From Solirubrobacter deserti (GTDB lineage: Bacteria; Actinomycetota; Thermoleophilia; Solirubrobacterales; Solirubrobacteraceae), in the NCBI RefSeq assembly GCF_027587175.1, contig NZ_JAPCID010000021.1, forward strand, positions 1 to 64,000: 64,000 nt of DNA, in the 5' to 3' direction. Shown in pieces: positions 1-11,499 of this stretch (position 1 is its first letter; every line of letters starts with the position of its first letter). A model generated the notes under the pieces. That model saw only the letters and a program-made list of their open reading frames with translations, had not been told where the DNA came from and did no database searches. Position numbers and translations under genes: made by a program.

Positions 1-1281
1 GCCGGGCGGGGGGCGGGCCGCGGGGGCGACGGGGGGCGGGGCGGTAGGCGACGCCACGAGGGCGGGCGGGGCCGCCGCCGCCGGCGCCGCGGCCCGCTGC
101 CGCGCGGCGCGCGAGCGCGCCGCGTTGCGGCGTTGACGCTTGGCCCGGCGCGCCTCCGAGGCCGCGCGTGATGCGGTCCGCGCGCGGGCTGCCCGACCGG
201 GCCGCGCCCTGTCGTGTTCGGCCGCTTCGCCGGATCGCGTCGCCCGCTTCTCGCCGGTGGAGGGCGCACCCGCTGGCGGGGAGATCGCGGGCCGCGTCAG
301 TCCGCGGCGGTCCGCGGCGGCCTGGCCGGCACCGGCACCCGGCGTGCCGCTGGTCACGGCCGCGCCCGGAGGCTCCGGCGCGCTGTGGCCGGGCGGCCGA
401 TCGAAGAGCCGGACGCCGGCGAACGCCGTCACGGCCACCGCGCCGGCGGGCGCCGCCGCCAGCCCGGCCTGGCGAGCGCGCCGCGCGGGACGCGGGCGGT
501 CTCGCGGCCCGGGCGCCGCCCCGCTCCCTCCGCCGCGCCGCGCGGCAACCACCGCCGCGGCGGGCGGGGTCACGGCGGCGAGCCCGCGCATGCGCAGCAC
601 GCGGTACCGGCAGGCCGAGCAGTCCTCGAGGTGCTGCGCCGCGAGGCGGCGTCGCTCCCCGCCGGTGTCGAGCAGGCCAAGCGCATAGGCCCTGATGAGC
701 GACTCCCTTCGATCGCACCACTCGCCGCGCTCGATCTCGCCGAGCAGATCGCCGAGCTTCTTCGACACGCCGTCCATCAGCTTCTCCATCCGCCGCGGGC
801 TCACACCGAGCACCCGGGCGGCGTCCCGGCGCGTGTAGGCGTGCACGTAGCAGAGCGCCGCGGCCTGCTGCTCGCGCACCGTCAGCCGCTCACGCAGCCC
901 TTCGACGAACTGGCCGAGCCGGACATGGTCGTCAAGCCGCTCGGCGAGGTCGGGCTCCACCATCGGCAGCTCGACGTCGTCGACGGCCGCACGACGGTCC
1001 GGGTGCAACGCGCGCACCTCGTCGAGGGCACGCCGCTCGGCGATCGTGATCACCAGCCCGGCGCGGTTCGCGATCGGCTCGCCGGCCGCAAGCCGCGTGT
1101 ACACGCCATGCCAGGCCTGGTTGTAGGACGCTTCAAGGTCCGCGTCGTCGAGGCGAAGGCCGCGCGCGGCGAGCTTGCCCCGCAGCGTGCTGAGGACCTC
1201 GGGCTTGAGCCGCTCGTAGTCCTGCGCGACGATCGCGTCGGCGCGCTGGCGCCGATACCGCGACTCGGCAAGCGCGGTCAT
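1..1281 (-). CDS. Sigma-70-like / zinc-finger / membrane fusion protein (C-terminus beyond window)
   Basis: The reading frame is open from an ATG at 1281 to the left edge without a stop, so the C-terminus is missing. Residues ~1-180 resemble an ECF-type sigma factor: a helical region 2-like part, then a region 4-like helix-turn-helix around residues 132-175 (LTVREQQAAALCYVH, RRDAARVLGVSPRRMEKL). At ~213-222 there is an anti-sigma-like HLEDCSACR zinc-binding motif. A hydrophobic helix follows at ~270-297 and then a long Ala/Arg/Pro-rich low-complexity tail. The start codon overlaps the stop of the secreted protein upstream (ATGA), so the two are probably co-translated. Region 2 is weakly conserved, so real promoter recognition is uncertain. 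A similar architecture recurs at 52045-53280. Confidence 0.7.
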   Translation of the reverse strand, partial: MTALAESRYRRQRADAIVAQDYERLKPEVLSTLRGKLAARGLRLDDADLEASYNQAWHGVYTRLAAGEPIANRAGLVITIAERRALDEVRALHPDRRAAVDDVELPMVEPDLAERLDDHVRLGQFVEGLRERLTVREQQAAALCYVHAYTRRDAARVLGVSPRRMEKLMDGVSKKLGDLLGEIERGEWCDRRESLIRAYALGLLDTGGERRRLAAQHLEDCSACRYRVLRMRGLAAVTPPAAAVVAARRGGGSGAAPGPRDRPRPARRARQAGLAAAPAGAVAVTAFAGVRLFDRPPGHSAPEPPGAAVTSGTPGAGAGQAAADRRGLTRPAISPPAGAPSTGEKRATRSGEAAEHDRARPGRAARARTASRAASEARRAKRQRRNAARSRAARQRAAAPAAAAPPALVASPTAPPPVAPAARPPPG

Positions 1282-2915
1282 CGGATGTCGACGTCGACGA
1301 GCTGGCGCTCGCTGCGCACGACCGGCCACGGCCACCCGGGCGTGGACTCGACCACCGTCCGGAACGAGAACGTCGTGTCGCGCGTCAGGTGGACGAACCG
1401 GTAGCGCCAGCGGTACCGGCCGTCTGCGCGGGCGCGGGCGACGCCGACCGGCGCCCAGCGTCCGTTGACGATCGACTCGACGCGTACGATCGCGCCGCGG
1501 GCCGACGGCCCCGCGCCGCGCAGCCGTCCTTGCAACGTGAGCGTGCGCCCCTTCACCAGCGAGCCGGGGTGCGGCTCGGCGCTGAGCCGCAGACGCGTCC
1601 GGACCGTCACGGACGCGCTTGCGGCCGGCGCGCTCCCGGCGGCGGGGACGAACGCAACGGTGATGCGCCGCGCGCCGTCACCACGGGCGGGCACGGTGAA
1701 GCGTCCGCGCTGGTCGGTCGTGACCCGCGCGAGCGGGCGCGGCTCGGGGTCGTCGACGCCGAGGTCGAGCGAGGTCACCTCGAGCCGGGCGCCGGCGAGC
1801 GGTGCGCCCCGCGGCGTCCGCAACGTCCCGGTCACGTGCGCTGTGGCCCCGGCGCCGTGGACGATCGATCGCCGCGCCAGCCGCAGCTCGGCCGCTCGGA
1901 GCGCCTGCGCCGGCCCGGGCGCAGGTGCCGCCAGCACGGCGGGCGGCGTCACGGGCACGGGGCGCGGATCGGCCACGGTCGGGGCCCGCACCTCGAACTC
2001 GACGGGTCCCCAGCCGGTGACGTTGCCCGCCGCGTCGGCGACGGTCCCGGACGCGGTGTGGTGCCCGGCGGTGAGCGCGCCGGCATCGACGCGGAAGTGC
2101 TCGGCCACGGAGGTCGGACACGGAACGGCGGTCACGTACGGCTCGCGGCACCCCGTGGACGCGGTCTGCGCCGGCCTGCCGTCAATCGAGAGAGACACCG
2201 ACTCCACGCCGCCGCCCCGGTCCCACGCGGAGACCGTCAAGACCGCCGCGCCAGGCGCCACCGGCCCGTCCACGAGCTGGCCCGACACCGTCGGAGCCGC
2301 CGGCGGCTCCAGGTCTTCGAGGGTCACCTGCGCGCGGTACAGCGCGGCCTGCGCCGGCGTGCGGTCCGGTCGCTGGCACCACGACCGCTCGCACGAGACC
2401 TGCAACCGCACCGCGTCGAGCGGCGCCCGACGCTGCGTGACTTCGTTGGCCGGCGCGAGCGGGTCACCCGGATCCCCGGCGGCCGTGCATGTCCACGTGC
2501 TGCAGCCGTACGGCACCGCCGCACCGCCGGCGCTCTCCGCCACCGCGGCGCCGTAGTCGAAGCTGCGCAGGAACTGCGGCGGCGCGACCGCCAGCGAGCG
2601 CCACAGCCGGTAGCCGGCGATCCGCGTCCCGGGCGGAGCGGACAACGCCGCCATCCCGACGACGGCGCTGCTGAACTCCCGGCCTGGCGCCAGCGAGACG
2701 CTCAGCGCGCCGCCCTGGGCGCAGGTGTCGGCGAAGGTCACGTCGCCCGCCGCCGCGTTCACCGTCGTCGACGTCCACGCCGCGGCGCTCAGCGGCTCGC
2801 CCGCCGGCCCGCGACACGACCACACCGAGTACGTCTTGGCGTGGACGACCGCCGGCAGGGTCAGGCACACTCCCACCGCGGCGGCCGACGCGTAGCTCAA
2901 CCAGCCCTTGCCCAT
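1278..2915 (-). CDS. Secreted multi-domain Ig-like surface protein
   Basis: A 545-residue exported protein. I chose the ATG at 2915 because it opens directly into a signal peptide (MGKGWLSYASAAAVGVCLTL, ending AVVHA); the frame continues upstream to 3014 without signal character. Residues ~25-190 form a beta-rich, Cys-containing N-terminal domain. An Ig-like segment at ~215-310 has the phrase SGTVADAAGNVTGWG typical of surface Ig repeats. A Pro/Ala linker follows, then two carboxypeptidase-regulatory-like beta domains (~360-545) with G-R-F/Y-x-V turns. No catalytic motif is visible. The stop overlaps the start of the sigma-like gene, forming a two-gene operon whose promoter should lie in the 2916-3090 intergenic region with the inverted repeat. 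Function unknown; cell-surface location is inferred. Confidence 0.75.
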   Translation of the reverse strand: MGKGWLSYASAAAVGVCLTLPAVVHAKTYSVWSCRGPAGEPLSAAAWTSTTVNAAAGDVTFADTCAQGGALSVSLAPGREFSSAVVGMAALSAPPGTRIAGYRLWRSLAVAPPQFLRSFDYGAAVAESAGGAAVPYGCSTWTCTAAGDPGDPLAPANEVTQRRAPLDAVRLQVSCERSWCQRPDRTPAQAALYRAQVTLEDLEPPAAPTVSGQLVDGPVAPGAAVLTVSAWDRGGGVESVSLSIDGRPAQTASTGCREPYVTAVPCPTSVAEHFRVDAGALTAGHHTASGTVADAAGNVTGWGPVEFEVRAPTVADPRPVPVTPPAVLAAPAPGPAQALRAAELRLARRSIVHGAGATAHVTGTLRTPRGAPLAGARLEVTSLDLGVDDPEPRPLARVTTDQRGRFTVPARGDGARRITVAFVPAAGSAPAASASVTVRTRLRLSAEPHPGSLVKGRTLTLQGRLRGAGPSARGAIVRVESIVNGRWAPVGVARARADGRYRWRYRFVHLTRDTTFSFRTVVESTPGWPWPVVRSERQLVDVDIR

Positions 2916-2965: not shown

Positions 2966-3055
2966 CTACGACCTTGGGATGATCTTCGGCGCCGGACCTG
3001 GTCCGGCAGCGCACGCCCGGTGGCTCAGGGCGGGAAGATCATCCCAACGTCGTAG
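2966..3055. promoter_or_regulatory. Inverted repeat (22-nt arms, one mismatch) between divergent genes
   Basis: The arm at 2966-2987 is the reverse complement of 3034-3055 except for one base; the spacer is 46 nt. Each arm contains the 16-mer TACGACCTTGGGATGA (2967-2982 exact on plus; 3039-3054 on minus, 15/16). It lies between the divergent secreted-protein operon (start 2915) and the LuxR gene (start about 3091). The 16-mer recurs exactly at 10547-10562 and in weaker form at 7021-7036 and 6195-6210, so it is likely a protein-binding site rather than a terminator. A LuxR-family protein binding here is inference. Confidence 0.6.
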
Positions 3056-3090
3056 GCCACGTCGACGGCGCACGGCTCATACTCGGCGCG

Positions 3091-3861
3091 ATGCGGAGGC
3101 GGCCGAGCGAGGCAGCGCGTGGATCTGCGCCGGTGCTCACACCGGTCGACCTCACGCCCCCAGGCGACGGACTGCTGCAGCTGATGGCCTCGGCCCTGCG
3201 GGTCGTCGTCACGGTGGTCCCCGCCGCGGTCGCCATCTTCTACGTCGTCACGCGGCGGCTACGCGTCGGCGATGGGGTGTTCACGCCGCCGCCGCCCGCG
3301 CTGGCCCAGCTGCCGGACGAGTGGGCCGAGCGCCACCGCAGCCCGGACTTCGTCGATCCGTTCGCCGCCAGCCGCGTCGCCGACGTCAGCGCCCCCGTGC
3401 TGCACCTCGACGACGTGCTCCCCCGGGAAGCGCTCGCCGACTCGTCGTACGGACGCTTCCTGGCGCGGTACGGCGTCGACGACCAGCTCGCGCTCTACGT
3501 CCGCGCGTCCGGCGCGATCGTCGGCGCCATCACGCTGATGCGCACGGCCGAGGCACCGGCGTTCGATCCCCGCGAGCGGCTGCTGCTGCGACGGCTCCAG
3601 CCCCTGGTCGAGCACGTCTACGTCGAGGCGCGCGAGCCGGCGGTGGCGTCGGACCGCCACGAGGCGCTGCTCCTGGCGAGCCTCACGCCGCGCGAAGCGG
3701 AGGTCGCCCAGCTCGTGGCCGGGGGCTCGACCAACGCGGAGATCTCGCGGGCGCTGTACATGAGTCTTCCGACCGTGAAGACCCACGTGACGCAGATCTA
3801 CGCCAAGCTCGGGGTGCGCAACCGGACCCAGCTCGCGATTCTGCTCGGCCCGCGGGCGTGA
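3091..3861 (+). CDS. LuxR-family transcriptional regulator
   Basis: A 256-residue regulator. The C-terminal ~65 residues are a GerE/LuxR helix-turn-helix: LTPREAEVAQLVAGG, TNAEISRALYMS, TVKTHVTQIYAKLGVRNR. The N-terminal ~190 residues look GAF-like (LALYVRASGAIVGAITLMR, FDPRERLLLRRLQPLVEHVY) and lack a phosphoacceptor receiver domain, so the input is probably a ligand or protein contact. The protein at 6217-6933 is a paralogue along its whole length. The start is uncertain: ATG 3091 has no clear ribosome site, and an in-frame GTG at 3133 is possible. It is divergent from the secreted-protein operon and is the best candidate to bind the inverted repeat upstream. It ends 6 nt before the convergent GGDEF gene. 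Confidence 0.85.
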   Translation: MRRRPSEAARGSAPVLTPVDLTPPGDGLLQLMASALRVVVTVVPAAVAIFYVVTRRLRVGDGVFTPPPPALAQLPDEWAERHRSPDFVDPFAASRVADVSAPVLHLDDVLPREALADSSYGRFLARYGVDDQLALYVRASGAIVGAITLMRTAEAPAFDPRERLLLRRLQPLVEHVYVEAREPAVASDRHEALLLASLTPREAEVAQLVAGGSTNAEISRALYMSLPTVKTHVTQIYAKLGVRNRTQLAILLGPRA

Positions 3862-3867
3862 CCGTCG

Positions 3868-5577
3868 TCAGGCGTACGGGCCGCGGAACGCGGCGAGCCG
3901 GCCCTCCCCGGCGGCGCGCGCTTGACGGCAGGCGGCCTCGGCGCCGGCGATCAGCGCTTCCGGCGTCGTGAGCCTGCGGGAGGCGTCGGCGACGCCGACG
4001 CTCGCGCTCAGCCCGCGCTGCAGGAGCGCGGCCTGAACCTCGCGTCCGGCCGCGGCGCAGGCGTCGAGGTCGGCGCCGGTGAGCACCGCGGCGAGCGTCC
4101 CGGCTCCGATCCGCGCGGCGTCCGCGCCCGTGTGCGCGCGCATCACCGCGGCCGCGACGAGCAGCGCCTCGTCGCCGGCCGCGAAGCCGTGCTCGGCGTT
4201 GAGCCGGCGAAGGTCATCCAGCTCGACCACGAGCACGCTGAGCGGCCGCCCGGAGGCGCACGCCCGCTGGACGTCCGCATGCAGCAGGTCGCGGAAGCGC
4301 CGGTGGTTGGCCAGCCCGGTCAGCTCGTCCTGCAGATCGGGGTTCCGGAGCCGCTCGTGCAGGTCGATGGCTTCGATCGACGCGGCGGTCTGCGCCGCGA
4401 GATACGCGAGCAGCTCGCTCTGCTCGCGCGAGAACGGCCCGCTCGTCCGGCAGACCGCGAGCGCGCCGAGGATCACGGGATCTCGCGACGCCAGCAGCGG
4501 ACGCCCGATCGCCCACAACCCGTGGTCGTCGCTCGACGCGGTCGCGTCCCCGGCGAGCGCCGCCCGCTCGACCGAGAGCAGCGCCTCCGAGTCGGCGTCG
4601 CCCGAGCGCGCGGGCACCGCCTCGAAGACGGACGACTCCAGCGCGCCGGCAAGTCGCGCCCGGCCGGCCGTGCCGGCGACGGCGTCGACGGCGGTCCCGA
4701 GCGCGACCTCGAGCATCGCGTCGCGGTCGAGGCTGTAGCCGAGCGATCGTGCCGTGCGGTGGATGGCCACCCGTACGCGCTCGCGCTCGCGCTCGACCTC
4801 GTCGAGCCGGTCGAGCGCGGCGTTCACCCGCTGGGTCCGGTCGCGTGCGAGCGCCGCCAGCAGCAGGGCCAGGGGCAGGGTCGCGAGCACGCCGAGCGGC
4901 TCGTGGGCGGCGGCCGTCGCGGTCACGAGTCCGGCGGGCACGAGCGTCGCGTCGACCGCGTAGACGGTGAGCATGACCCGCAGCTGGAGCGAAGGGCGGA
5001 TGCCGCGACCGAGCCACTCGCGTCCGACGGACAGGACGCAGTCGAGCGCGATCTGCGCCGCGAACGCCGCGGCGAGCACCGCCCACTGGCCGGTGGCCGC
5101 GTCCGGCTCGCCCGCGGCGCTGAGCACCACCACCGGCGCGAACGCGTACCCCGCGTCGCCGACCGCGGTGAGCAGCCGGCTGGGGGACTGCCGCCCCGCT
5201 AGCACCTCCGGGAGCGCGCCGCATACCAGCGCCACGACGACGACCAGTGGCACCAGCCCGAGCGGCAGCAGGAACAGCAGCGGGACGAAGACGAGCTGCG
5301 TGGCGAGCGCGGACCCGCCACCGACATACAGCCGCACGTGCGTGCAGACCGCGAACGCGAACACGCCCGCGACGAGCGAGCCGACGTCCAGCGAGCGCGC
5401 CGACGGCAGGGCGACCGCGGCGGCCAGCGCTCCGCCCGCGACGAGCGCCGCGAGCGCGAGCTCGACCCGCAGCTCGCGTTCGCTCAGCCCACGCGGGCGG
5501 TCGGGGCGCGACCGCGCAAGCAGCTCCTCGACACCGCCCTCAGCCCTTGCTGTAGGGGTCGACGTAGACATCGTCAA
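3868..5577 (-). CDS. Membrane GAF-GGDEF protein, degenerate (probably non-catalytic)
   Basis: A 569-residue protein. Residues ~35-250 hold about seven hydrophobic segments (MASE-like sensor). A short coiled region (~250-270) leads into a GAF domain (~275-410), then a GGDEF-family domain (~410-569) starting DELTGLANHRRFRDLL. The active-site loop, normally RxGGDEFAxLL, reads RIGAGTLAAVLTG near residue 489: the GGDEF signature is gone, including both acidic catalytic residues. Diguanylate cyclase activity is therefore unlikely; a c-di-GMP- or protein-binding sensory role is inference. The start overlaps the end of the upstream secreted-protein gene by 38 nt; ATG at 5571 is an alternative start. 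Confidence 0.8.
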   Translation of the reverse strand: MTMSTSTPTARAEGGVEELLARSRPDRPRGLSERELRVELALAALVAGGALAAAVALPSARSLDVGSLVAGVFAFAVCTHVRLYVGGGSALATQLVFVPLLFLLPLGLVPLVVVVALVCGALPEVLAGRQSPSRLLTAVGDAGYAFAPVVVLSAAGEPDAATGQWAVLAAAFAAQIALDCVLSVGREWLGRGIRPSLQLRVMLTVYAVDATLVPAGLVTATAAAHEPLGVLATLPLALLLAALARDRTQRVNAALDRLDEVERERERVRVAIHRTARSLGYSLDRDAMLEVALGTAVDAVAGTAGRARLAGALESSVFEAVPARSGDADSEALLSVERAALAGDATASSDDHGLWAIGRPLLASRDPVILGALAVCRTSGPFSREQSELLAYLAAQTAASIEAIDLHERLRNPDLQDELTGLANHRRFRDLLHADVQRACASGRPLSVLVVELDDLRRLNAEHGFAAGDEALLVAAAVMRAHTGADAARIGAGTLAAVLTGADLDACAAAGREVQAALLQRGLSASVGVADASRRLTTPEALIAGAEAACRQARAAGEGRLAAFRGPYA

Positions 5578-6151
5578 TCTCCCATGTGCTCAAGCCCAGC
5601 GACGTGAAGCGCAGCGCGACCCGCGTACGTCCGCCGAGCGCCAGCAGGTTCGCCAGCACCGGCATGGGCGGTGATGGAGCCCAGCCGCCCCCGGAGCTCA
5701 CCAGCAGGCCCACGGGCAGACCGATTCGCAGGCCGAGGACCGTCGTCACCACGACCTCGACCGCGAGCGAGCCCAACGGCGATCCCGTCTTGCGGACGAA
5801 GAAGCGCAGCGACGGGTGGTGGAGTCCCACGCAGATCTCCGGCGACTTCGCGGTCCCTCCCGGCGCCAGCTCCAGGGCGTGCGCGTCCGTCGCCGCGCGC
5901 TTGTTGAGGGGCTGGTTGCCCTCGACCACGATGGCGCGCGACCGCTGCCAGCCGCTGGCTCCGCCCTCGAAGCCACCGTCGCCGACGAGCACGTAGTTCG
6001 CGTCGTCCGCCCACGGCGCGAACGGGCGCTCGAGCGTCTCCGGCGGGCAGTTGTAGGCCGGGCGCACGAGGATCTGCGCGTGCGCTGGGGCGGCGGAGAA
6101 CGCGAAAACGGCGACGACGGCGAACACCAGTGCGAGCGGCATGCGGCGCAT
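5540..6151 (-). CDS. Secreted protein of unknown function, carbohydrate-binding-like fold
   Basis: About 203 residues from ATG 6151 (alternative ATG 6142). The start was chosen because a signal peptide follows directly (MRRMPLALVFAVVAVFAFSA, cleavage near AHAQ). The mature part begins with a short Cys-containing stretch and then FEGGASGWQ, a pattern common at the front of jelly-roll carbohydrate-binding modules. Alternating beta segments continue to an ending WEIDDVYVDPY, again typical of such modules. No enzyme motif is present. It is transcribed into the GGDEF gene, overlapping it by 38 nt. A weaker copy of the 16-nt motif lies 44 nt upstream (6195-6210). Confidence 0.7.
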   Translation of the reverse strand: MRRMPLALVFAVVAVFAFSAAPAHAQILVRPAYNCPPETLERPFAPWADDANYVLVGDGGFEGGASGWQRSRAIVVEGNQPLNKRAATDAHALELAPGGTAKSPEICVGLHHPSLRFFVRKTGSPLGSLAVEVVVTTVLGLRIGLPVGLLVSSGGGWAPSPPMPVLANLLALGGRTRVALRFTSLGLSTWEIDDVYVDPYSKG

Positions 6152-6194
6152 CGTCGCCGCCGGCGACGCGCCCGTGTGCCGTCGGCCGCGAGGA

Positions 6195-6210
6195 TCAACC
6201 CTAAGTCGCA
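6195..6210 (-). promoter_or_regulatory. Weak copy of recurrent 16-nt motif
   Basis: Read on the minus strand this is TGCGACTTAGGGTTGA, 12/16 to TACGACCTTGGGATGA. It sits 44 nt upstream of the secreted-protein start at 6151, in the same orientation as that gene. It is a weak match and counts mainly because stronger copies occur in the neighbouring intergenic regions. Confidence 0.3.
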
Positions 6211-6216
6211 GGCCGC

Positions 6217-6933
6217 TCATGCGCTCGCCACCGTCGGCGCGGCGCCCAGGACCACGGCCAGCTGCGTTCTCGTCCGCACGCCGACCTTGGCGTAGATCTT
6301 CGTCAGGTGAGTCTTGACGGTCGCCTGGCTCATCGCCAGCGCCTGCGCAATGTCCGCGTTGCTGGACCCGCTCGCGACCAGCGCGGCGACCTGGCGTTCC
6401 CGGCGGGTCAGGGCGTCGACCGGCTCGCGCGCGGCCAGCGGGTCGGCCGCCACCGCCTCTGCGGCGCCGACGAGCAACGACTGCTCGAGCAGCAGCGACA
6501 GACGCCTGAGCAGCAGCAAGTTCGCGGGCTCGAACGGCGGCATGCCCGCCTCGCGGAACAGCCCGATGGCCGCGACGATCCGCCGGTCGCGCCGCAGGTA
6601 GAGGAACGCCGGGTATCCGTACCCGTTGTCGAGCAGGCGCCGTCCGTAGATCGAGTTGAAGAAGCGCGTGGTCCCGCCGATCTCGGCCACCGACAGCACG
6701 ACGTCGCGACGGTCCTGAGCGCGGCGCGGGCTGAACGGGTCGACCGGCTCCAGCCGCCGCAGCAGTTCCGCGAGGCGCTCGGCCGGGGCGGCGTGCTCCG
6801 AACGGCCACGGCTTGCGACCTCGCGATCAAGGGTCCCGGACTCGTCGACCGCGAGGGCAACGACCAGCGAGGCCGGAATGAGCGCATGCAGCGCGTCGAC
6901 GGCCAAGCCCAGCAAGACGTCCTCCCTGCTCAC
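6217..6933 (-). CDS. LuxR-family transcriptional regulator (paralogue of the 3091 gene)
   Basis: About 238 residues. The GTG at 6933 is preferred: a G-rich ribosome site (GGGGGT) precedes it and the protein then starts VSREDVLLGLAVDAL, matching the paralogue; the frame runs upstream to 7008 through Arg-rich sequence that does not look coding. The C-terminal helix-turn-helix is clear: LTRRERQVAALVASGSSNAD, TVKTHLTKIYAKVGVRTRTQ. The N-terminal part is GAF-like (LYLRRDRRIVAAIGLFREAG). No receiver aspartate pocket is seen, so this is a stand-alone LuxR rather than a response regulator. The 16-nt motif copy at 7021-7036 lies ~90 nt upstream. Confidence 0.82.
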   Translation of the reverse strand: MSREDVLLGLAVDALHALIPASLVVALAVDESGTLDREVASRGRSEHAAPAERLAELLRRLEPVDPFSPRRAQDRRDVVLSVAEIGGTTRFFNSIYGRRLLDNGYGYPAFLYLRRDRRIVAAIGLFREAGMPPFEPANLLLLRRLSLLLEQSLLVGAAEAVAADPLAAREPVDALTRRERQVAALVASGSSNADIAQALAMSQATVKTHLTKIYAKVGVRTRTQLAVVLGAAPTVASA

Positions 6934-7020
6934 CCCTACCCCCGAAAGGTTCGTGCCCCGAGATTCTGGACGCGAGCGTCTCCTACGCCGGCCCGTCCAC
7001 GCAAGCATGGCAGGGCGAAC

Positions 7021-7036
7021 TCATCCGAAAGTCGGA
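7021..7036 (-). promoter_or_regulatory. Copy of recurrent 16-nt motif upstream of LuxR gene
   Basis: On the minus strand the sequence is TCCGACTTTCGGATGA, 13/16 to the motif at 2967-2982 and 10547-10562. It lies in the 7037-6934 gap upstream of the LuxR gene and in the same orientation. Autoregulation is a reasonable inference. Confidence 0.4.
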
Positions 7037-7074
7037 GACGGCGGGTAGGAGACCCGCCGCCCTCGACCGTGTCC

Positions 7075-7467
7075 TCACGATTCGATGCCGCGCAGCGCCT
7101 TCAGCGCGTGTTGCAGGCGCTCGGCTTCGGCCGTCGCCGGAGCGAGCTCGTCGAGGCGCGCCTCGAGCTCGCGGATCTGCCGTTCGATCAGCGGCGACGT
7201 CTCGTCGGCGTGCCGCGCGGGCGGCGGCCGCAGCGGGTGGCTCGTGCAGTGCTCGAGGTAGTAGCGGGTGGCCTGGATGCGGTTCCGGACCCCGATCTTC
7301 CTGTACATGTTCGTCAGGTGCGTCTTGATCGTGCCCGGCGTGACCCCCAGCTGGCGCGCGATGTCGGGGGTGGTGTTGCCGGCCGCCAACAGCGCGAGGG
7401 TCTCGAGCTCGCGCGGGGTGAGCGGTTCGTTCCCTCGCACCCGAGCGGGTTCGTTGCGTTGGCCCAT
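7075..7467 (-). CDS. Small LuxR-type DNA-binding protein with C-terminal coiled coil
   Basis: A 130-residue protein from ATG 7467 (MGQRNEPARV). The helix-turn-helix fills the N-terminal half: LTPRELETLALLAAG, TTPDIARQLGVTPGTIKTHL, MYRKIGVRNRIQ. There is no sensor domain in front of it. A charged helix at ~95-127 (IERQIRELEARLDELAP) is a probable coiled coil for dimerisation. The gene follows the DUF11 gene on the same strand, separated by a strong palindrome. An inverted repeat CAGTCG-GT-CGACTG (7475-7488) lies just upstream of the start and may be its operator. A single-domain LuxR protein of this kind could act as a constitutive or modulating partner of its longer paralogues (inference). 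Confidence 0.75.
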   Translation of the reverse strand: MGQRNEPARVRGNEPLTPRELETLALLAAGNTTPDIARQLGVTPGTIKTHLTNMYRKIGVRNRIQATRYYLEHCTSHPLRPPPARHADETSPLIERQIRELEARLDELAPATAEAERLQHALKALRGIES

Positions 7468-7495
7468 GGCGTTCAGTCGGTCGACTGCTCCCGCT

Positions 7496-7526
7496 GGGTG
7501 CGGCGCCGCCCGGCGGCGCCGCACCC
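7496..7526 (-). terminator. Perfect 31-nt GC palindrome downstream of DUF11 gene
   Basis: Arms 7496-7510 and 7512-7526 are exact reverse complements (15 bp) around a single base. It begins 17 nt past the stop of the DUF11 gene and ends upstream of the small LuxR gene. No T-tract follows on the minus strand, so it is a terminator-like or mRNA-stabilising hairpin rather than a textbook intrinsic terminator. Confidence 0.5.
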
Positions 7527-7543
7527 TGGTGGTGGGGAGGGAG

Positions 7544-10279
7544 CTACCCGGTCACCCCCGGGGAGGGGTTGACCACCCGCACCGACCGCCTGGCCGTGGC
7601 GGGCTTGACGTCGGACGAGCTGACCGTCGCGCGGTTGACCTTGCGGCCGCTGGCGCCCTTGGCCGCGCGCACCGTCACCCGGAACGTGCGGCTCTTGCCG
7701 GCGGCGAGCGAGGTGACCGTCCAGCACCGCTGGCTCCCGCTGCGCCGCGCGCGCGGCGACGAGCTGACGAAGGTCAGGCCCGACGGCAGGCGGTCGCAGA
7801 CCTCCACGTTGCGGGCCACGCCCTTGGACGGGTTGCTGACGCGGATGCGGTAGCTCAACGTCGATCCCGCCTGGACGGAGGCCCGGCTGGCCACCTTGGT
7901 CAGCCGCAGCGGCACCTTCTGGACGTCGACGTCTGCCGTGTCCATGTTGTTGCCCGGCGTCGAGTCGGTCCCGCAGCAGCTCGTCGCGCTGGCAGCGTTG
8001 CGCACCCGGCCGCTCTTGAGCGGCGCGATGATCATCGTCACCGTGACGCTCTTGCCCGGCTCGATCCGGCCCAGCTGACAGCTCACGGGCAGTTGTTGCG
8101 TGCAGGTGCCCTGGGTCGTGCGCGCGGACACCAGGGTCGCCGGGGAGTTGAGCGTGTCGGTGACCTCGGCCGCCGGGGCCGCGCCCGGGCCGTTGTTGCG
8201 GACCACGACCCGGTACGTGAGCCGCTGGCCGACGAGCGGCCGCGCGAGGCCGGCACGCTTGTCGACCGCCAGGTCGAAGGCCTCGGGCGCCGGCGCGGCT
8301 GGCACCGCTGGCACGCAGACCACGGCCGACGCGCGGTTGTCGTCTGCCGCCGGATCGCTGCGCGAGCCCTGCGCCTGTGCCGTGTTGGTGATGCACCCGG
8401 GCGCCGCCGTGGTGTTGGTGGTCACCAGCACCTGCGCCGAGCCGCCGTTGCGGAGCGCGCCGAGATCGCACGCGACGCGGTTGTTGGCCGTGGTGCACGA
8501 CCCCTGGCTGGCCTCCGCCGCGACGAGCGTCAGCCCGGCCGGGAGCGGGTCGGTCACCTTCACGTCGGGATCGTCGCTCGGCCCGTTGTTGCGAACCACG
8601 AGCGTGTACATGACCTGTCCACCGCCGGCGGGCACGGTCTGCGTCGAAGCGGTCTTGGTCATCGACACCGCCGACCGGGCCACGATCGGGACGCAGATCG
8701 TCGAGCTGTTGTTGCTCGTGTTCGGGTCCAGGGTCGCCCCGGCCGTCGTCGCGGTGTTGCGCAGGCAGCTGGTGAGCGAGCTCGCGACCTGGCCGGTGAT
8801 CGTGAAGGTCTTCGACGCGCCGACCGCGAGATCGCCGACCGCACACGTCACCGTACCGCTCGCCTCGTTGCAGCCCGGGCTCGCCGAGGTGAACGTGACC
8901 TCGGCCGGCAGCTTGTCGGTGATCGTCTCGTTGACCGCCGTGCTGGGGCCGTTGTTGGTCACCCTCAGGGAGAACGTCACGTCCTCGCCCGGGACGATCG
9001 GCGACGACGTCGCGCGCTTCTCGAGCACCACGTCCGCCATGGCCGAGTTCATGACGTTGCACGTGTAGTAGGTCGCGCTCGCGACTGTCAGCGTCCACGT
9101 TGGCCCGGTGCCGCCCGTGGCCACCGGGTTGCCGTTGGAGTCCTTGCACGCGAGCGAGCTCTGGTACTCGCCCAGCGGCGTCGGCGAGCCGGGAGCCATC
9201 GCGTCGGTGATCGTGTACGTCCTGCCCTGGCTCACCGGCCAGTTGGTCGTCGACGCCGTCGTCGCGGTGCCGGACGTCGTCGCCGAGTCCAGCGCCCGCC
9301 CCGTGTCCTCGACCAGCCCGACGACGAACTGGTCGGCCGGCCGCACCCGGCCGTTGACCGTCTTGGTCACCGTGATGGTCGGCACCGGCGCGCTCGCGCA
9401 CCGCCCGCCGTCGTTGCCTCCCGACGGCTGTCCCGTGGAGGCGAGGATCGTGGCACGCGTGGTCGTGTCGACGCGGTAGACGTTGCCGTTCGCGTTCTGG
9501 CTTCCGTAGAGGTACCCGGAGGCGTCGACGAAGACGGCGCCGATGCCGCCGCCCGAGAACCCGACGGGCCCCAGGTCGATCACGCGGCCGGTGGCCGGAT
9601 CGAAGCGCGCGAGATGCGTGGGCCCGGTCGGCACCGTCGCGCTGACGAGCGCGTGCAACGAGCCATTGACGAACGCCCAGTCGGCCATGCCGCCCGGCTG
9701 CAAGCCCGGGTCCCACGTGAACGTGCCCGACCGCAACACGCTCGGGGTCGGGGTCGTCAGGTCGACTTCGTACCAGTTGACGGTGTTGGCCACCCAATAG
9801 TGGCCATCGGGGCCCACGTCGCCGACGTGGTGACCCTCGGTGGCGGGGATGGTGCCGCCCGGCCCGGTGGGCGATCCGAGGTCGTCGACGCTGCCGTCGC
9901 TGTGGACGCGCACGATCGACAACGTCGGGGTGGCCGGGTCGTCCTCGTTGTTCTGCCGGCCGTAGTAGAAGCCGTCGAGCTGGTTGAACCCGACGGCGTT
10001 GACCGGATGTGCAAGATCGACCAGCTTGGTCTGCTGACCGCTGGCGAGGTCGACCCGATAGATCTCGTTCGTCCCGGCGGTGGGCGTCTGGAACAGGTAG
10101 CCGAACGCGTCGCACGACCACGCGCTCGCCTGGGCCGACGCCGACGGGGCGGCCACCGCCATCGTCGCCAGCGCCAAGGCCGTCACCACAGCAGCACGTA
10201 CCCGGCCCCTGGAGCGCCGGAAGCGCGCACCCGGCCCGCGGGCGTCCGGGTCGTCACTGGATGAGCGTGCTTCGAACAT
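7544..10279 (-). CDS. Large secreted DUF11-repeat surface protein
   Basis: A 911-residue exported protein. ATG 10279 is chosen because GGGAGG sits at normal spacing before it, although the frame is open to 10315. A long signal peptide ends near ASAQ (~residue 49). Residues ~50-310 look like a beta-propeller (repeated YRVD, HLARFDP blades, DUF6923-like). Residues ~310-410 resemble a prealbumin/SpaA-type domain. Four DUF11 repeats follow (about 420-525, 545-655, 680-790, 795-895), each with the TNNGPS/RNNGP core and a D-x-LPxG turn. No LPxTG sorting signal or C-terminal membrane helix is visible. The family is known from cell-surface proteins; an adhesive or structural role is inference. Confidence 0.85.
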   Translation of the reverse strand: MFEARSSSDDPDARGPGARFRRSRGRVRAAVVTALALATMAVAAPSASAQASAWSCDAFGYLFQTPTAGTNEIYRVDLASGQQTKLVDLAHPVNAVGFNQLDGFYYGRQNNEDDPATPTLSIVRVHSDGSVDDLGSPTGPGGTIPATEGHHVGDVGPDGHYWVANTVNWYEVDLTTPTPSVLRSGTFTWDPGLQPGGMADWAFVNGSLHALVSATVPTGPTHLARFDPATGRVIDLGPVGFSGGGIGAVFVDASGYLYGSQNANGNVYRVDTTTRATILASTGQPSGGNDGGRCASAPVPTITVTKTVNGRVRPADQFVVGLVEDTGRALDSATTSGTATTASTTNWPVSQGRTYTITDAMAPGSPTPLGEYQSSLACKDSNGNPVATGGTGPTWTLTVASATYYTCNVMNSAMADVVLEKRATSSPIVPGEDVTFSLRVTNNGPSTAVNETITDKLPAEVTFTSASPGCNEASGTVTCAVGDLAVGASKTFTITGQVASSLTSCLRNTATTAGATLDPNTSNNSSTICVPIVARSAVSMTKTASTQTVPAGGGQVMYTLVVRNNGPSDDPDVKVTDPLPAGLTLVAAEASQGSCTTANNRVACDLGALRNGGSAQVLVTTNTTAAPGCITNTAQAQGSRSDPAADDNRASAVVCVPAVPAAPAPEAFDLAVDKRAGLARPLVGQRLTYRVVVRNNGPGAAPAAEVTDTLNSPATLVSARTTQGTCTQQLPVSCQLGRIEPGKSVTVTMIIAPLKSGRVRNAASATSCCGTDSTPGNNMDTADVDVQKVPLRLTKVASRASVQAGSTLSYRIRVSNPSKGVARNVEVCDRLPSGLTFVSSSPRARRSGSQRCWTVTSLAAGKSRTFRVTVRAAKGASGRKVNRATVSSSDVKPATARRSVRVVNPSPGVTG

Positions 10280-10315
10280 GCGTGTCCCTCCCGTATGGGC
10301 ACTGGCATCCTCCAC

Positions 10316-10689
10316 GCGTGAAGTGACACGCGCGGATCAGCGGGCGTCTCAGCCCGGCTGGTGTTGACTTACTGTGAGTGGAGGTTGCGGAATGACCTCA
10401 CGACAGCTCGGTCACTGACAGCTGATGACCTGGTCGTGCCGGCCGAAGCGGCGCGCCAGCGCGCCGGAGGACTCTTCCGACGGGCCGTCGTGCCGATCGC
10501 AGACCATATGCGGTGTGAGTCTCTGCCGCATGGCAGAGCCCGTCTTTCATCCCAAGGTCGTATCCGACCACCGGGGGTCGCTGTGCGTTCACATACGCGT
10601 GACTACGACCAAAGAGTGATTCCGGCGGTGACGCTTACCAGCGACGGCCTCGTGCTGACTAGGCTGGCCACCCCGGGGGCGCGTCCCGG
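10316..10689. promoter_or_regulatory. Intergenic regulatory region with motif copies
   Basis: A 374-nt gap between the divergent DUF11 and L,D-transpeptidase genes; no convincing gene is present. It contains an exact copy of TACGACCTTGGGATGA on the minus strand (10547-10562, directed toward the DUF11 gene) and a degenerate plus-strand copy at 10603-10618 (11/16), so the two form a loose inverted pair like that at 2966-3055. Promoters for both genes must lie here, but I cannot place -10/-35 boxes with confidence. Confidence 0.5.
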
Positions 10690-11499
10690 ATGCAGACAGC
10701 CATGCGACGTCCACGACTCACAGGCGAGGGACCCGGGCGACTGACGCTTCGGCGCCACGCGCGCGCGCTCGTAGCGGTGGGCGCGATCGCCGTGACAGGC
10801 CCCACGCCCGCCCATGCGCAAGCGCCGACGCCGACGCCGACGCCGACGCCGTTCACGGTCGCCGCGCCGTCCCGCGCGAACGGCTCGACCGTCGCGCGAC
10901 TCGTCGCGCCCGCGTTCGCTCGCCATGACCTGCGCGCCGCGAAGTCCGGCCGCCGGCTGGGGACGACGACCTCGTGGTCGGCGCAGCCGCAGGCGCTGCT
11001 GGTGCTCGAGGGGGCGACGTTCGAGGGGCAGGACTGGGTGAAGGTGCTGCTGCCGACCCGCCCGAACGGCTCCACCGGGTGGGTCCCGCGCGACCGCGTC
11101 GCGCTCGGCCGCAGCCGCTACTGGATCACGGTCCGCCTGCGCACGCGGCGCGTCACCGTCTACCGCGACGGCAAGCGCGTACGCTCGTTCCGCGCGGTCA
11201 TCGGCGCCCGGGCGACGCCGACCCCGCTCGGGCTCGCCGCCATCTACGAGCGCAACCGCCAGCCGAACCCCCGGGTATTCGTCGGTCCATGGGTGCTGTC
11301 CCTGACCAGCCTCTCGAACGTCCTCGAGAGCTACGGCGGCGGCCCGGGACGGGTCGCGATCCACGGCCGGTCCGGCGCCAGCCTGCGCGACCCGCTCGGC
11401 AGTGCCCGCTCGCACGGCTGCATGCGCGTCAATAACCGCGATGTCCGCTGGCTCGCCACGCGGGTGCCGGCCGGCACGCCGGTGCACGTCAGGCGCTGA
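10690..11499 (+). CDS. L,D-transpeptidase (YkuD family), exported
   Basis: A 269-residue protein (alternative ATG 10702). A signal peptide ends near AHAQ (~residue 44), followed by a PTPTPTPTP linker encoded by a hexanucleotide repeat. An SH3-like wall-binding region (~60-135; WVKVLLP, GSTGWVPRDRV) precedes the YkuD catalytic domain (~140-269). The active site is intact: H in AIHGRSG and the SHGCMRV box with catalytic cysteine and arginine. Such enzymes make 3-3 peptidoglycan cross-links or attach proteins to the wall, outside the membrane. Divergence from the DUF11 surface protein, with shared motif copies between them, suggests joint control of the cell surface. Confidence 0.9.
   Translation: MQTAMRRPRLTGEGPGRLTLRRHARALVAVGAIAVTGPTPAHAQAPTPTPTPTPFTVAAPSRANGSTVARLVAPAFARHDLRAAKSGRRLGTTTSWSAQPQALLVLEGATFEGQDWVKVLLPTRPNGSTGWVPRDRVALGRSRYWITVRLRTRRVTVYRDGKRVRSFRAVIGARATPTPLGLAAIYERNRQPNPRVFVGPWVLSLTSLSNVLESYGGGPGRVAIHGRSGASLRDPLGSARSHGCMRVNNRDVRWLATRVPAGTPVHVRR
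10824..10851 (+). repeat. Hexanucleotide tandem repeat (GCCGAC, 4+ copies)
   Basis: Four full and one partial GCCGAC units within the L,D-transpeptidase gene, encoding the Pro-Thr linker after the signal peptide. Copy-number change would stay in frame and only lengthen or shorten the linker. Confidence 0.7.

What the first reader, a model, noticed from the sequence alone, without database searches (positions are those of the whole stretch)
2966..10618. Recurrent 16-nt motif across a LuxR/surface-protein region: candidate regulon
TACGACCTTGGGATGA occurs exactly at 2967-2982 (plus) and 10547-10562 (minus), at 15/16 at 3039-3054 (minus), and in weaker form at 7021-7036 (13/16), 6195-6210 (12/16) and 10603-10618 (11/16). 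All copies found lie in intergenic regions in front of the secreted Ig-like protein with the sigma-like gene, both GAF-LuxR genes, the carbohydrate-binding-like protein, the DUF11 protein and the L,D-transpeptidase. I did not notice the motif elsewhere in the window. One of the three LuxR proteins binding it to coordinate cell-surface remodelling is an inference, but the arrangement looks like an undescribed surface regulon.
Basis: partly seen in the sequence, partly recalled or inferred. Interest (0 to 1): 0.72.

Follow-up and report, generated by a model that had tools for sequence, protein, structure and literature searches.

The report
LuxR operator at Solirubrobacter surface-protein locus
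A short DNA sequence recurs in front of the genes of one soil-bacterium locus and of its counterpart in another species, most likely as the landing site of the locus's own LuxR-type switches, which would control surface proteins and a wall cross-linking enzyme; the surface proteins also carry an apparently unreported three-residue tail that goes with that enzyme across related bacteria.

Summary
The motif is real. Five of the six sites hold; the sixth (true position 10604-10619) is at chance level by score. In the 7.1 Mb genome (Solirubrobacter sp.) the three strong copies are the only ones with 0-2 mismatches. A degenerate form matches ten times: seven in intergenic DNA of this locus, three inside genes elsewhere. 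A matrix from only the three strong copies, run on 911 nt of intergenic DNA at the counterpart locus of another Solirubrobacter species, gives four sites with expected numbers of 0.008 or less; the next hit has 0.9. In the genus, intergenic sites were found only where this LuxR subfamily occurs. Mixed orientation argues for an operator, not a core promoter. Best reading: operator of the locus-encoded GAF-LuxR proteins, controlling surface proteins, a diguanylate cyclase, an L,D-transpeptidase and the LuxR genes. Binding is inferred. The subfamily also sits beside DUF11 and L,D-transpeptidase genes in other families. Unexpected: proteins encoded next to such transpeptidases end in [V/F/I]TG-COOH, across unrelated families (30 of 43 loci); the window's DUF11 protein does too. 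I found no report of this.

The parts
2967..2982 (-). operator copy TCATCCCAAGGTCGTA, reading towards the Ig-like gene
   Evidence: exact; with 3039-3054 it forms a 23-25 nt inverted repeat between divergent genes
3039..3054 (+). operator copy TCATCCCAACGTCGTA, 36 nt before the LuxR1 start
10547..10562 (+). operator copy TCATCCCAAGGTCGTA, 127 nt before the L,D-transpeptidase start and 267 nt before the DUF11 start (divergent genes)
7021..7036 (+). operator copy TCATCCGAAAGTCGGA ahead of LuxR2
   Evidence: expected 0.016 per 64 kb with a matrix from the three strong sites
6195..6210 (+). weak operator copy TCAACCCTAAGTCGCA ahead of the 5540-6151 gene
   Evidence: expected 1.2 per 64 kb; same place and orientation as TCATCCGGAGGTCGTA ahead of the orthologous gene in G003 (L070 7836-7851)
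   Evidence: 14 windows in 64 kb score the same; not supported
1278..2915 (-). secreted Ig-like/CarboxypepD_reg-like protein (start could be 2951)
3091..3861 (+). LuxR1: GAF-like sensor domain + GerE HTH
3868..5571 (-). membrane-type GGDEF (diguanylate cyclase) protein, downstream of 5540-6151
5540..6151 (-). secreted protein of an unnamed family (no Pfam or NCBIfam match), found in 53 of 232 genomes of the order, usually beside a GGDEF gene
6217..6933 (-). LuxR2: same subfamily as LuxR1
7075..7524 (-). LuxR3: HTH without the sensor domain, directly downstream of the DUF11 gene
7544..10279 (-). DUF11 surface protein, C-terminus NPSPGVTG
10690..11499 (+). L,D-transpeptidase (YkuD) with HGR...SHGCMRVN catalytic motif

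Best explanation
TCATCCsAAvGTCGTA is a locus-specific operator. One or more of the GAF-LuxR proteins encoded here (LuxR1, LuxR2, and LuxR0 just left of the window) bind it as dimers, probably in response to an unidentified small ligand of the GAF domain. They switch together the transcription units of the locus: Ig-like protein with the following gene, LuxR1, LuxR2, 5540-6151 protein with the GGDEF protein, and the divergent DUF11-LuxR3 and L,D-transpeptidase units. The output is a co-expressed surface layer, a wall-modifying enzyme and a c-di-GMP arm, with feedback on the LuxR genes. Shown: the sites, their near-confinement to the locus, their recurrence in a second species, co-occurrence with the subfamily, the HTH and a modelled GAF domain. 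Inferred: binding, dimer mode, sign of regulation, ligand, biological role.
For: No other site with 0-2 mismatches in the genome. Seven of ten degenerate matches are intergenic at this locus, the other three coding (the pattern was partly drawn from these sites). Independent: a matrix from three window sites finds four sites in 911 nt of intergenic DNA at the G003 counterpart locus, expected 0.008 or less each, then a gap to 0.9. The sensor-domain subfamily occurs in 10 of 232 genomes; in the genus only in the genomes with intergenic sites, always at the site-bearing locus. Both orientations relative to genes (four with, five against) fit an operator. GAF fold Z 14.5 over 145 residues; whole chain resembles RhlR/SdiA/QscR. 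The LuxR-DUF11-transpeptidase neighbourhood recurs in another family of the order.
Against: No binding or expression data. The genome has over 90 LuxR-type HTH proteins, so an unlinked one could read the site. Motif not found at the LuxR-DUF11-transpeptidase loci of the other family. The dyad symmetry of the motif is weak. Only two species carry a good set of sites, so co-occurrence rests on few independent events.
Confidence: 0.75

Rival explanations
1. The operator is real but is read by a regulator encoded elsewhere; the local LuxR genes are targets, not readers.
For: The genome holds over 90 LuxR-type HTH matches; no binding data exist.
Against: Sites and the sensor-domain subfamily occur in the same genomes and at the same loci; sites lie ahead of LuxR genes in both species, as in autoregulation.
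Confidence: 0.17
2. The motif is a core promoter element of an alternative sigma factor, perhaps the sigma-like gene at 1-1281.
For: A gene described as sigma-like lies in the same cluster; no sigma-70-type promoter was found here.
Against: Sites occur in both orientations relative to their genes and at variable distance (about 15-130 nt) from start codons, and form one compact 16 nt block, not two spaced elements. The 1-1281 product has no Pfam match.
Confidence: 0.05
3. Chance, or recent local duplication of a short stretch without regulatory meaning.
For: The copies at 2967 and 3039 share a 23-25 nt inverted repeat.
Against: The third exact copy shares only the core; shuffles do not give it; four predicted sites occur at the counterpart locus of another species.
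Confidence: 0.03

Closest known systems
LuxR-type quorum-sensing regulators and LuxR solos (RhlR, SdiA, QscR)
   Same: GerE HTH at the C-terminus, ligand-type sensor domain at the N-terminus, best whole-chain fold matches; 16 nt site of weak dyad symmetry beside the regulator's own gene.
   Different: Autoind_bind match below Pfam's cut-off; sensor domain scores best against GAF domains; no match to the LuxI family in the genome, though that search had no positive control; ligand unknown; several paralogs at one locus.
EpsA (TIGR03020), LuxR-type regulator associated with XrtB/PEP-CTERM
   Same: Best NCBIfam match of LuxR1 (53 bits); also a LuxR-type regulator tied to a C-terminal protein-sorting system.
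   Different: Far below the 170-bit cut-off, so not a member; no exosortase was noticed at this locus.
Sortase / LPXTG cell-wall sorting
   Same: Unrelated surface proteins share a C-terminal ...TG motif and are encoded beside a cysteine transpeptidase.
   Different: Transpeptidase is YkuD-type, not a sortase; the motif is the extreme C-terminus, with no hydrophobic segment or basic tail after it.
Protein-to-peptidoglycan attachment by L,D-transpeptidases (Braun lipoprotein; beta-barrel proteins of Alphaproteobacteria; own knowledge)
   Same: An L,D-transpeptidase that may link a protein to peptidoglycan.
   Different: There the protein supplies an amine (C-terminal Lys side chain or N-terminus); here the conserved feature is a C-terminal Thr-Gly carboxylate.

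Membership tests
LuxR/NarL-type (GerE) regulators | GerE HTH domain | tested here: met
   PF00196 in LuxR1, LuxR2, LuxR3, E 1e-18 to 5e-17, above cut-off
LuxR autoinducer receptors | autoinducer-binding domain | tested here: inconclusive
   PF03472 in LuxR1 at 20 bits, cut-off 23; model is GAF-fold (Z 14.5) and resembles RhlR/SdiA as a whole chain
LuxR autoinducer receptors | cognate LuxI synthase in the genome | tested here: inconclusive
   PF00765 gave no match in the genome, but no control genome rang either
Direct LuxR regulon | shared operator ahead of several transcription units, conserved in a relative | tested here: met
Direct LuxR regulon | the regulator binds the operator and changes expression | not testable with these tools
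   needs footprint and expression data
EpsA (TIGR03020) | score above the family cut-off | tested here: not met
   53.4 bits against 170
Sortase LPXTG substrates (for the DUF11 protein) | motif followed by hydrophobic segment and basic tail | tested here: not met
   the stop codon directly follows VTG or FTG in the six cases read from DNA
YkuD L,D-transpeptidases (for 10690-11499) | YkuD domain with HXn[ST]HGC catalytic motif | tested here: met
   PF03734 E 1.5e-22; SHGCMRVN in the translation

The most novel reading that the evidence does not exclude
The locus is one case of a surface-protein system in the window's class of bacteria (probably Thermoleophilia), in which unrelated secreted proteins end in [V/F/I]TG-COOH and a partner L,D-transpeptidase uses this end as a stand-in for its normal donor (L-centre followed by D-Ala or Gly with a free carboxylate). 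It would break Thr-Gly, release Gly and join the protein's C-terminus to a peptidoglycan amine: a sortase-like reaction by an unrelated enzyme, here under GAF-LuxR control.
Probability: 0.3. Interest if true: 0.9.

Novelty: new variant of a known kind. Interest (0 to 1): 0.6.

Why it matters
The regulon gives a concrete operator and cognate GAF-LuxR candidates in a lineage with hardly any studied transcription factors, and one binding assay would decide it. The tail found with it would, if it is an anchoring signal, be a new way for bacteria to fix proteins to the wall through L,D-transpeptidases, and would suggest a role for many unannotated surface proteins with DUF11 or ice-binding-like domains.

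Tried and rejected
The copy at 10604 was rejected by score. Near-matches in other genera (TCATCCCGACGTCGTA and others) were mostly inside coding ORFs or unresolved, none tied to this gene cluster, and were dropped; likewise the G003 and G002 matches outside the cluster, and a G003 hit at L070 11577 that looks like part of a tRNA gene. Motif search at the LuxR-DUF11-transpeptidase loci of the other family gave nothing convincing; the matrix may not fit their HTH, whose recognition helix differs. Sigma-70 promoter and terminator scans were uninformative. The model of the 5540-6151 protein was too poor to use (pLDDT 36). Most genes of that unknown protein family elsewhere lack the motif, so the motif follows the LuxR genes and not that family. 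A hand-seen spacing from the site to a -10-like CATACT ahead of LuxR1 did not repeat at the other sites and is not used. Literature searches in the held library found no description of the regulon or of the transpeptidase-tail pairing; that library lacks most subscription journals.

Full report
Where it is. The window is the start of contig C38 of a 7.1 Mb Solirubrobacter genome; strain CPCC 204708 is the same species and carries the same locus on one long contig. There the locus continues to the left with an aquaporin gene and a further LuxR gene (LuxR0, 47% identical to LuxR1).

Observation. The 11/16 copy is one base off, and that score is reached 14 times in the window. In the whole genome only the three strong copies have 0-2 mismatches. 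A degenerate pattern, TCMNCCSNAVGTCGNA, drawn from the sites of the window, its left flank and the second species, matches ten times in this genome: seven in intergenic DNA of this locus, including two left of the window, and three elsewhere; the elsewhere sites that could be inspected here or in the sister genome lie inside coding ORFs. Because the pattern was partly drawn from these sites, this count alone is circular; the next test is not.

Independent test. Another Solirubrobacter species (G003) has a counterpart locus: two GAF-LuxR genes (about 35-43% identical to those here), the ortholog of the secreted protein 5540-6151 followed by a GGDEF gene, a second GGDEF gene, a CAP gene and an RTX-repeat gene. 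A matrix from only the three strong window sites was run on its 911 nt of intergenic DNA. The four best hits (TCATCCGGAGGTCGTA, TCAGCGGAACGTCGTA, TCAGACCAACGTCGCA, TCGTCCGAAGGTCTGA) have expected numbers of about 0, 0.0007, 0.002 and 0.008; the fifth has 0.9. They lie ahead of the secreted-protein gene, the RTX gene, LuxR-A and the second GGDEF gene. I had seen these four by a mismatch search before computing the matrix scores, but the matrix itself did not use them. The site ahead of the secreted-protein gene has the same place and orientation as the weak 6195 site of the window, which rescues that site. The 7021 site stands alone (expected 0.016 per 64 kb).

Who reads it. A profile of the LuxR sensor domain matches in 10 of 232 genomes of the order; in this genus only in G000/G001 (three genes, all at this locus) and G003 (two genes, one locus). 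The four other species of the genus lack it, and their pattern matches are few and nearly all in coding DNA. Of nine sites, four read towards their gene and five the other way, which fits an operator and not a promoter. The core has a weak dyad (C-N2-CC-N3-(G)G-N2-G). LuxR1 has a GerE HTH; its AlphaFold2 model (pLDDT 81) has a GAF-fold N-terminal domain (Z 14.5, rmsd 3.3, 145 residues), and its best whole-chain matches are RhlR, SdiA and QscR. Binding is an inference from co-occurrence, autoregulatory position and architecture.

What it controls. Transcription units with a site within about 130 nt: Ig-like protein plus gene 1-1281; LuxR1; LuxR2; 5540-6151 plus GGDEF; L,D-transpeptidase. The DUF11-LuxR3 unit shares the divergent region holding the 10547 site. 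Outside the genus the same LuxR subfamily sits beside DUF11 genes in genomes G149, G147, G182 (two loci) and G032 (two loci, looser), with a transpeptidase gene next to DUF11 in G149 and both G182 loci. So the association of LuxR, DUF11 and L,D-transpeptidase is wider than the operator sequence. In G032 a LuxR-type/DUF11 divergent region holds two motif-like copies in tandem, a suggestive third case (p about 1.4e-5 per position for the better one).

Unexpected: a C-terminal tail that goes with the transpeptidase. The window's DUF11 protein ends ...NPSPGVTG. DUF11 proteins of other genera end in the same three residues after linkers that differ in length and sequence. Looking from the transpeptidase: of 53 distinct transpeptidase loci in the order, 43 have a complete same-strand gene directly 5', and 30 of those genes end in [VFIL]TG. 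Ten of the loci were fetched because they lacked such a neighbour within 1.5 kb, while a few came from earlier DUF11 searches, so the fraction is only a rough one; among all 459 unique genes called at these loci 44 have such an end, most of them these neighbours. Among 56 unique tails position -3 is V (40), F (11), I (4) or L (1); -2 and -1 are T and G by selection. The proteins belong to unrelated families: DUF11, ice-binding-like DUF3494, a ferritin-like protein, HYDIN/Big_3_5 Ig-like, DUF7507, and a cadherin/Big_9 plus DUF11 protein. Four cases lie in other families of the class, among many transpeptidase loci there without such a neighbour. Gene calls come from a simple codon-usage script; six quoted ends were checked in the DNA. 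The closest orthologs of the window's own transpeptidase (59-67% identical) mostly lack such a neighbour, and in the window the pair is divergent, so the pairing of these two genes rests on vicinity and a shared upstream region.

Mechanism proposed for the tail (inference). L,D-transpeptidases open the bond between the L-centre of diaminopimelate and a terminal D-Ala, and can use Gly in that place (own knowledge). A C-terminal L-Thr-Gly with a free carboxylate resembles that donor, which would explain why the motif is at the extreme end. The enzyme could then join the protein's end to a peptidoglycan amine, as sortase does at LPXT-G. Alternatives: the tail is recognised by another sorting or export factor, or protects against tail-specific proteases.

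Verdict. The regulon alone would be a new member of a known kind. The transpeptidase-linked tail in its products makes the module as a whole more unusual, hence 'new variant'.

Noticed in passing
window 7544-10279 and 10690-11499; L084, L085, L162, L192, L203-L225, L237-L263, L270, L274, L275, L284: Secreted proteins of unrelated families end exactly in [V/F/I]TG and are encoded next to an L,D-transpeptidase gene across the order and in other families of the class; candidate C-terminal anchoring signal.
   Followed up: partly
window 3868-6151; L092-L119: The unnamed secreted protein family (window 5540-6151) occurs in 53 of 232 genomes of the order and lies beside a GGDEF gene in nearly all loci examined; up to 13 copies per genome. 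Possible extracellular partner of the cyclase.
   Followed up: partly
L068 6803-8936 (left of the window in CPCC 204708): Aquaporin gene followed by LuxR0; ahead of it an inverted pair TCCACCCGAGGTCGCA / TCCACCGAAGGTCGCA, a variant of the motif, perhaps the site of LuxR0 itself.
   Followed up: partly
L083 12150-12477: Divergent region between a large LuxR-type regulator gene and a DUF11 gene ending in VTG holds two motif-like copies in tandem (TGCGACCTCCGAGGGG, GGCGACCTTCGGGTGA).
   Followed up: no
L267 6913-8331: A secreted protein whose gene overlaps a transpeptidase gene ends PVPVTR instead of ...VTG: possible variant tail.
   Followed up: no
   Followed up: no
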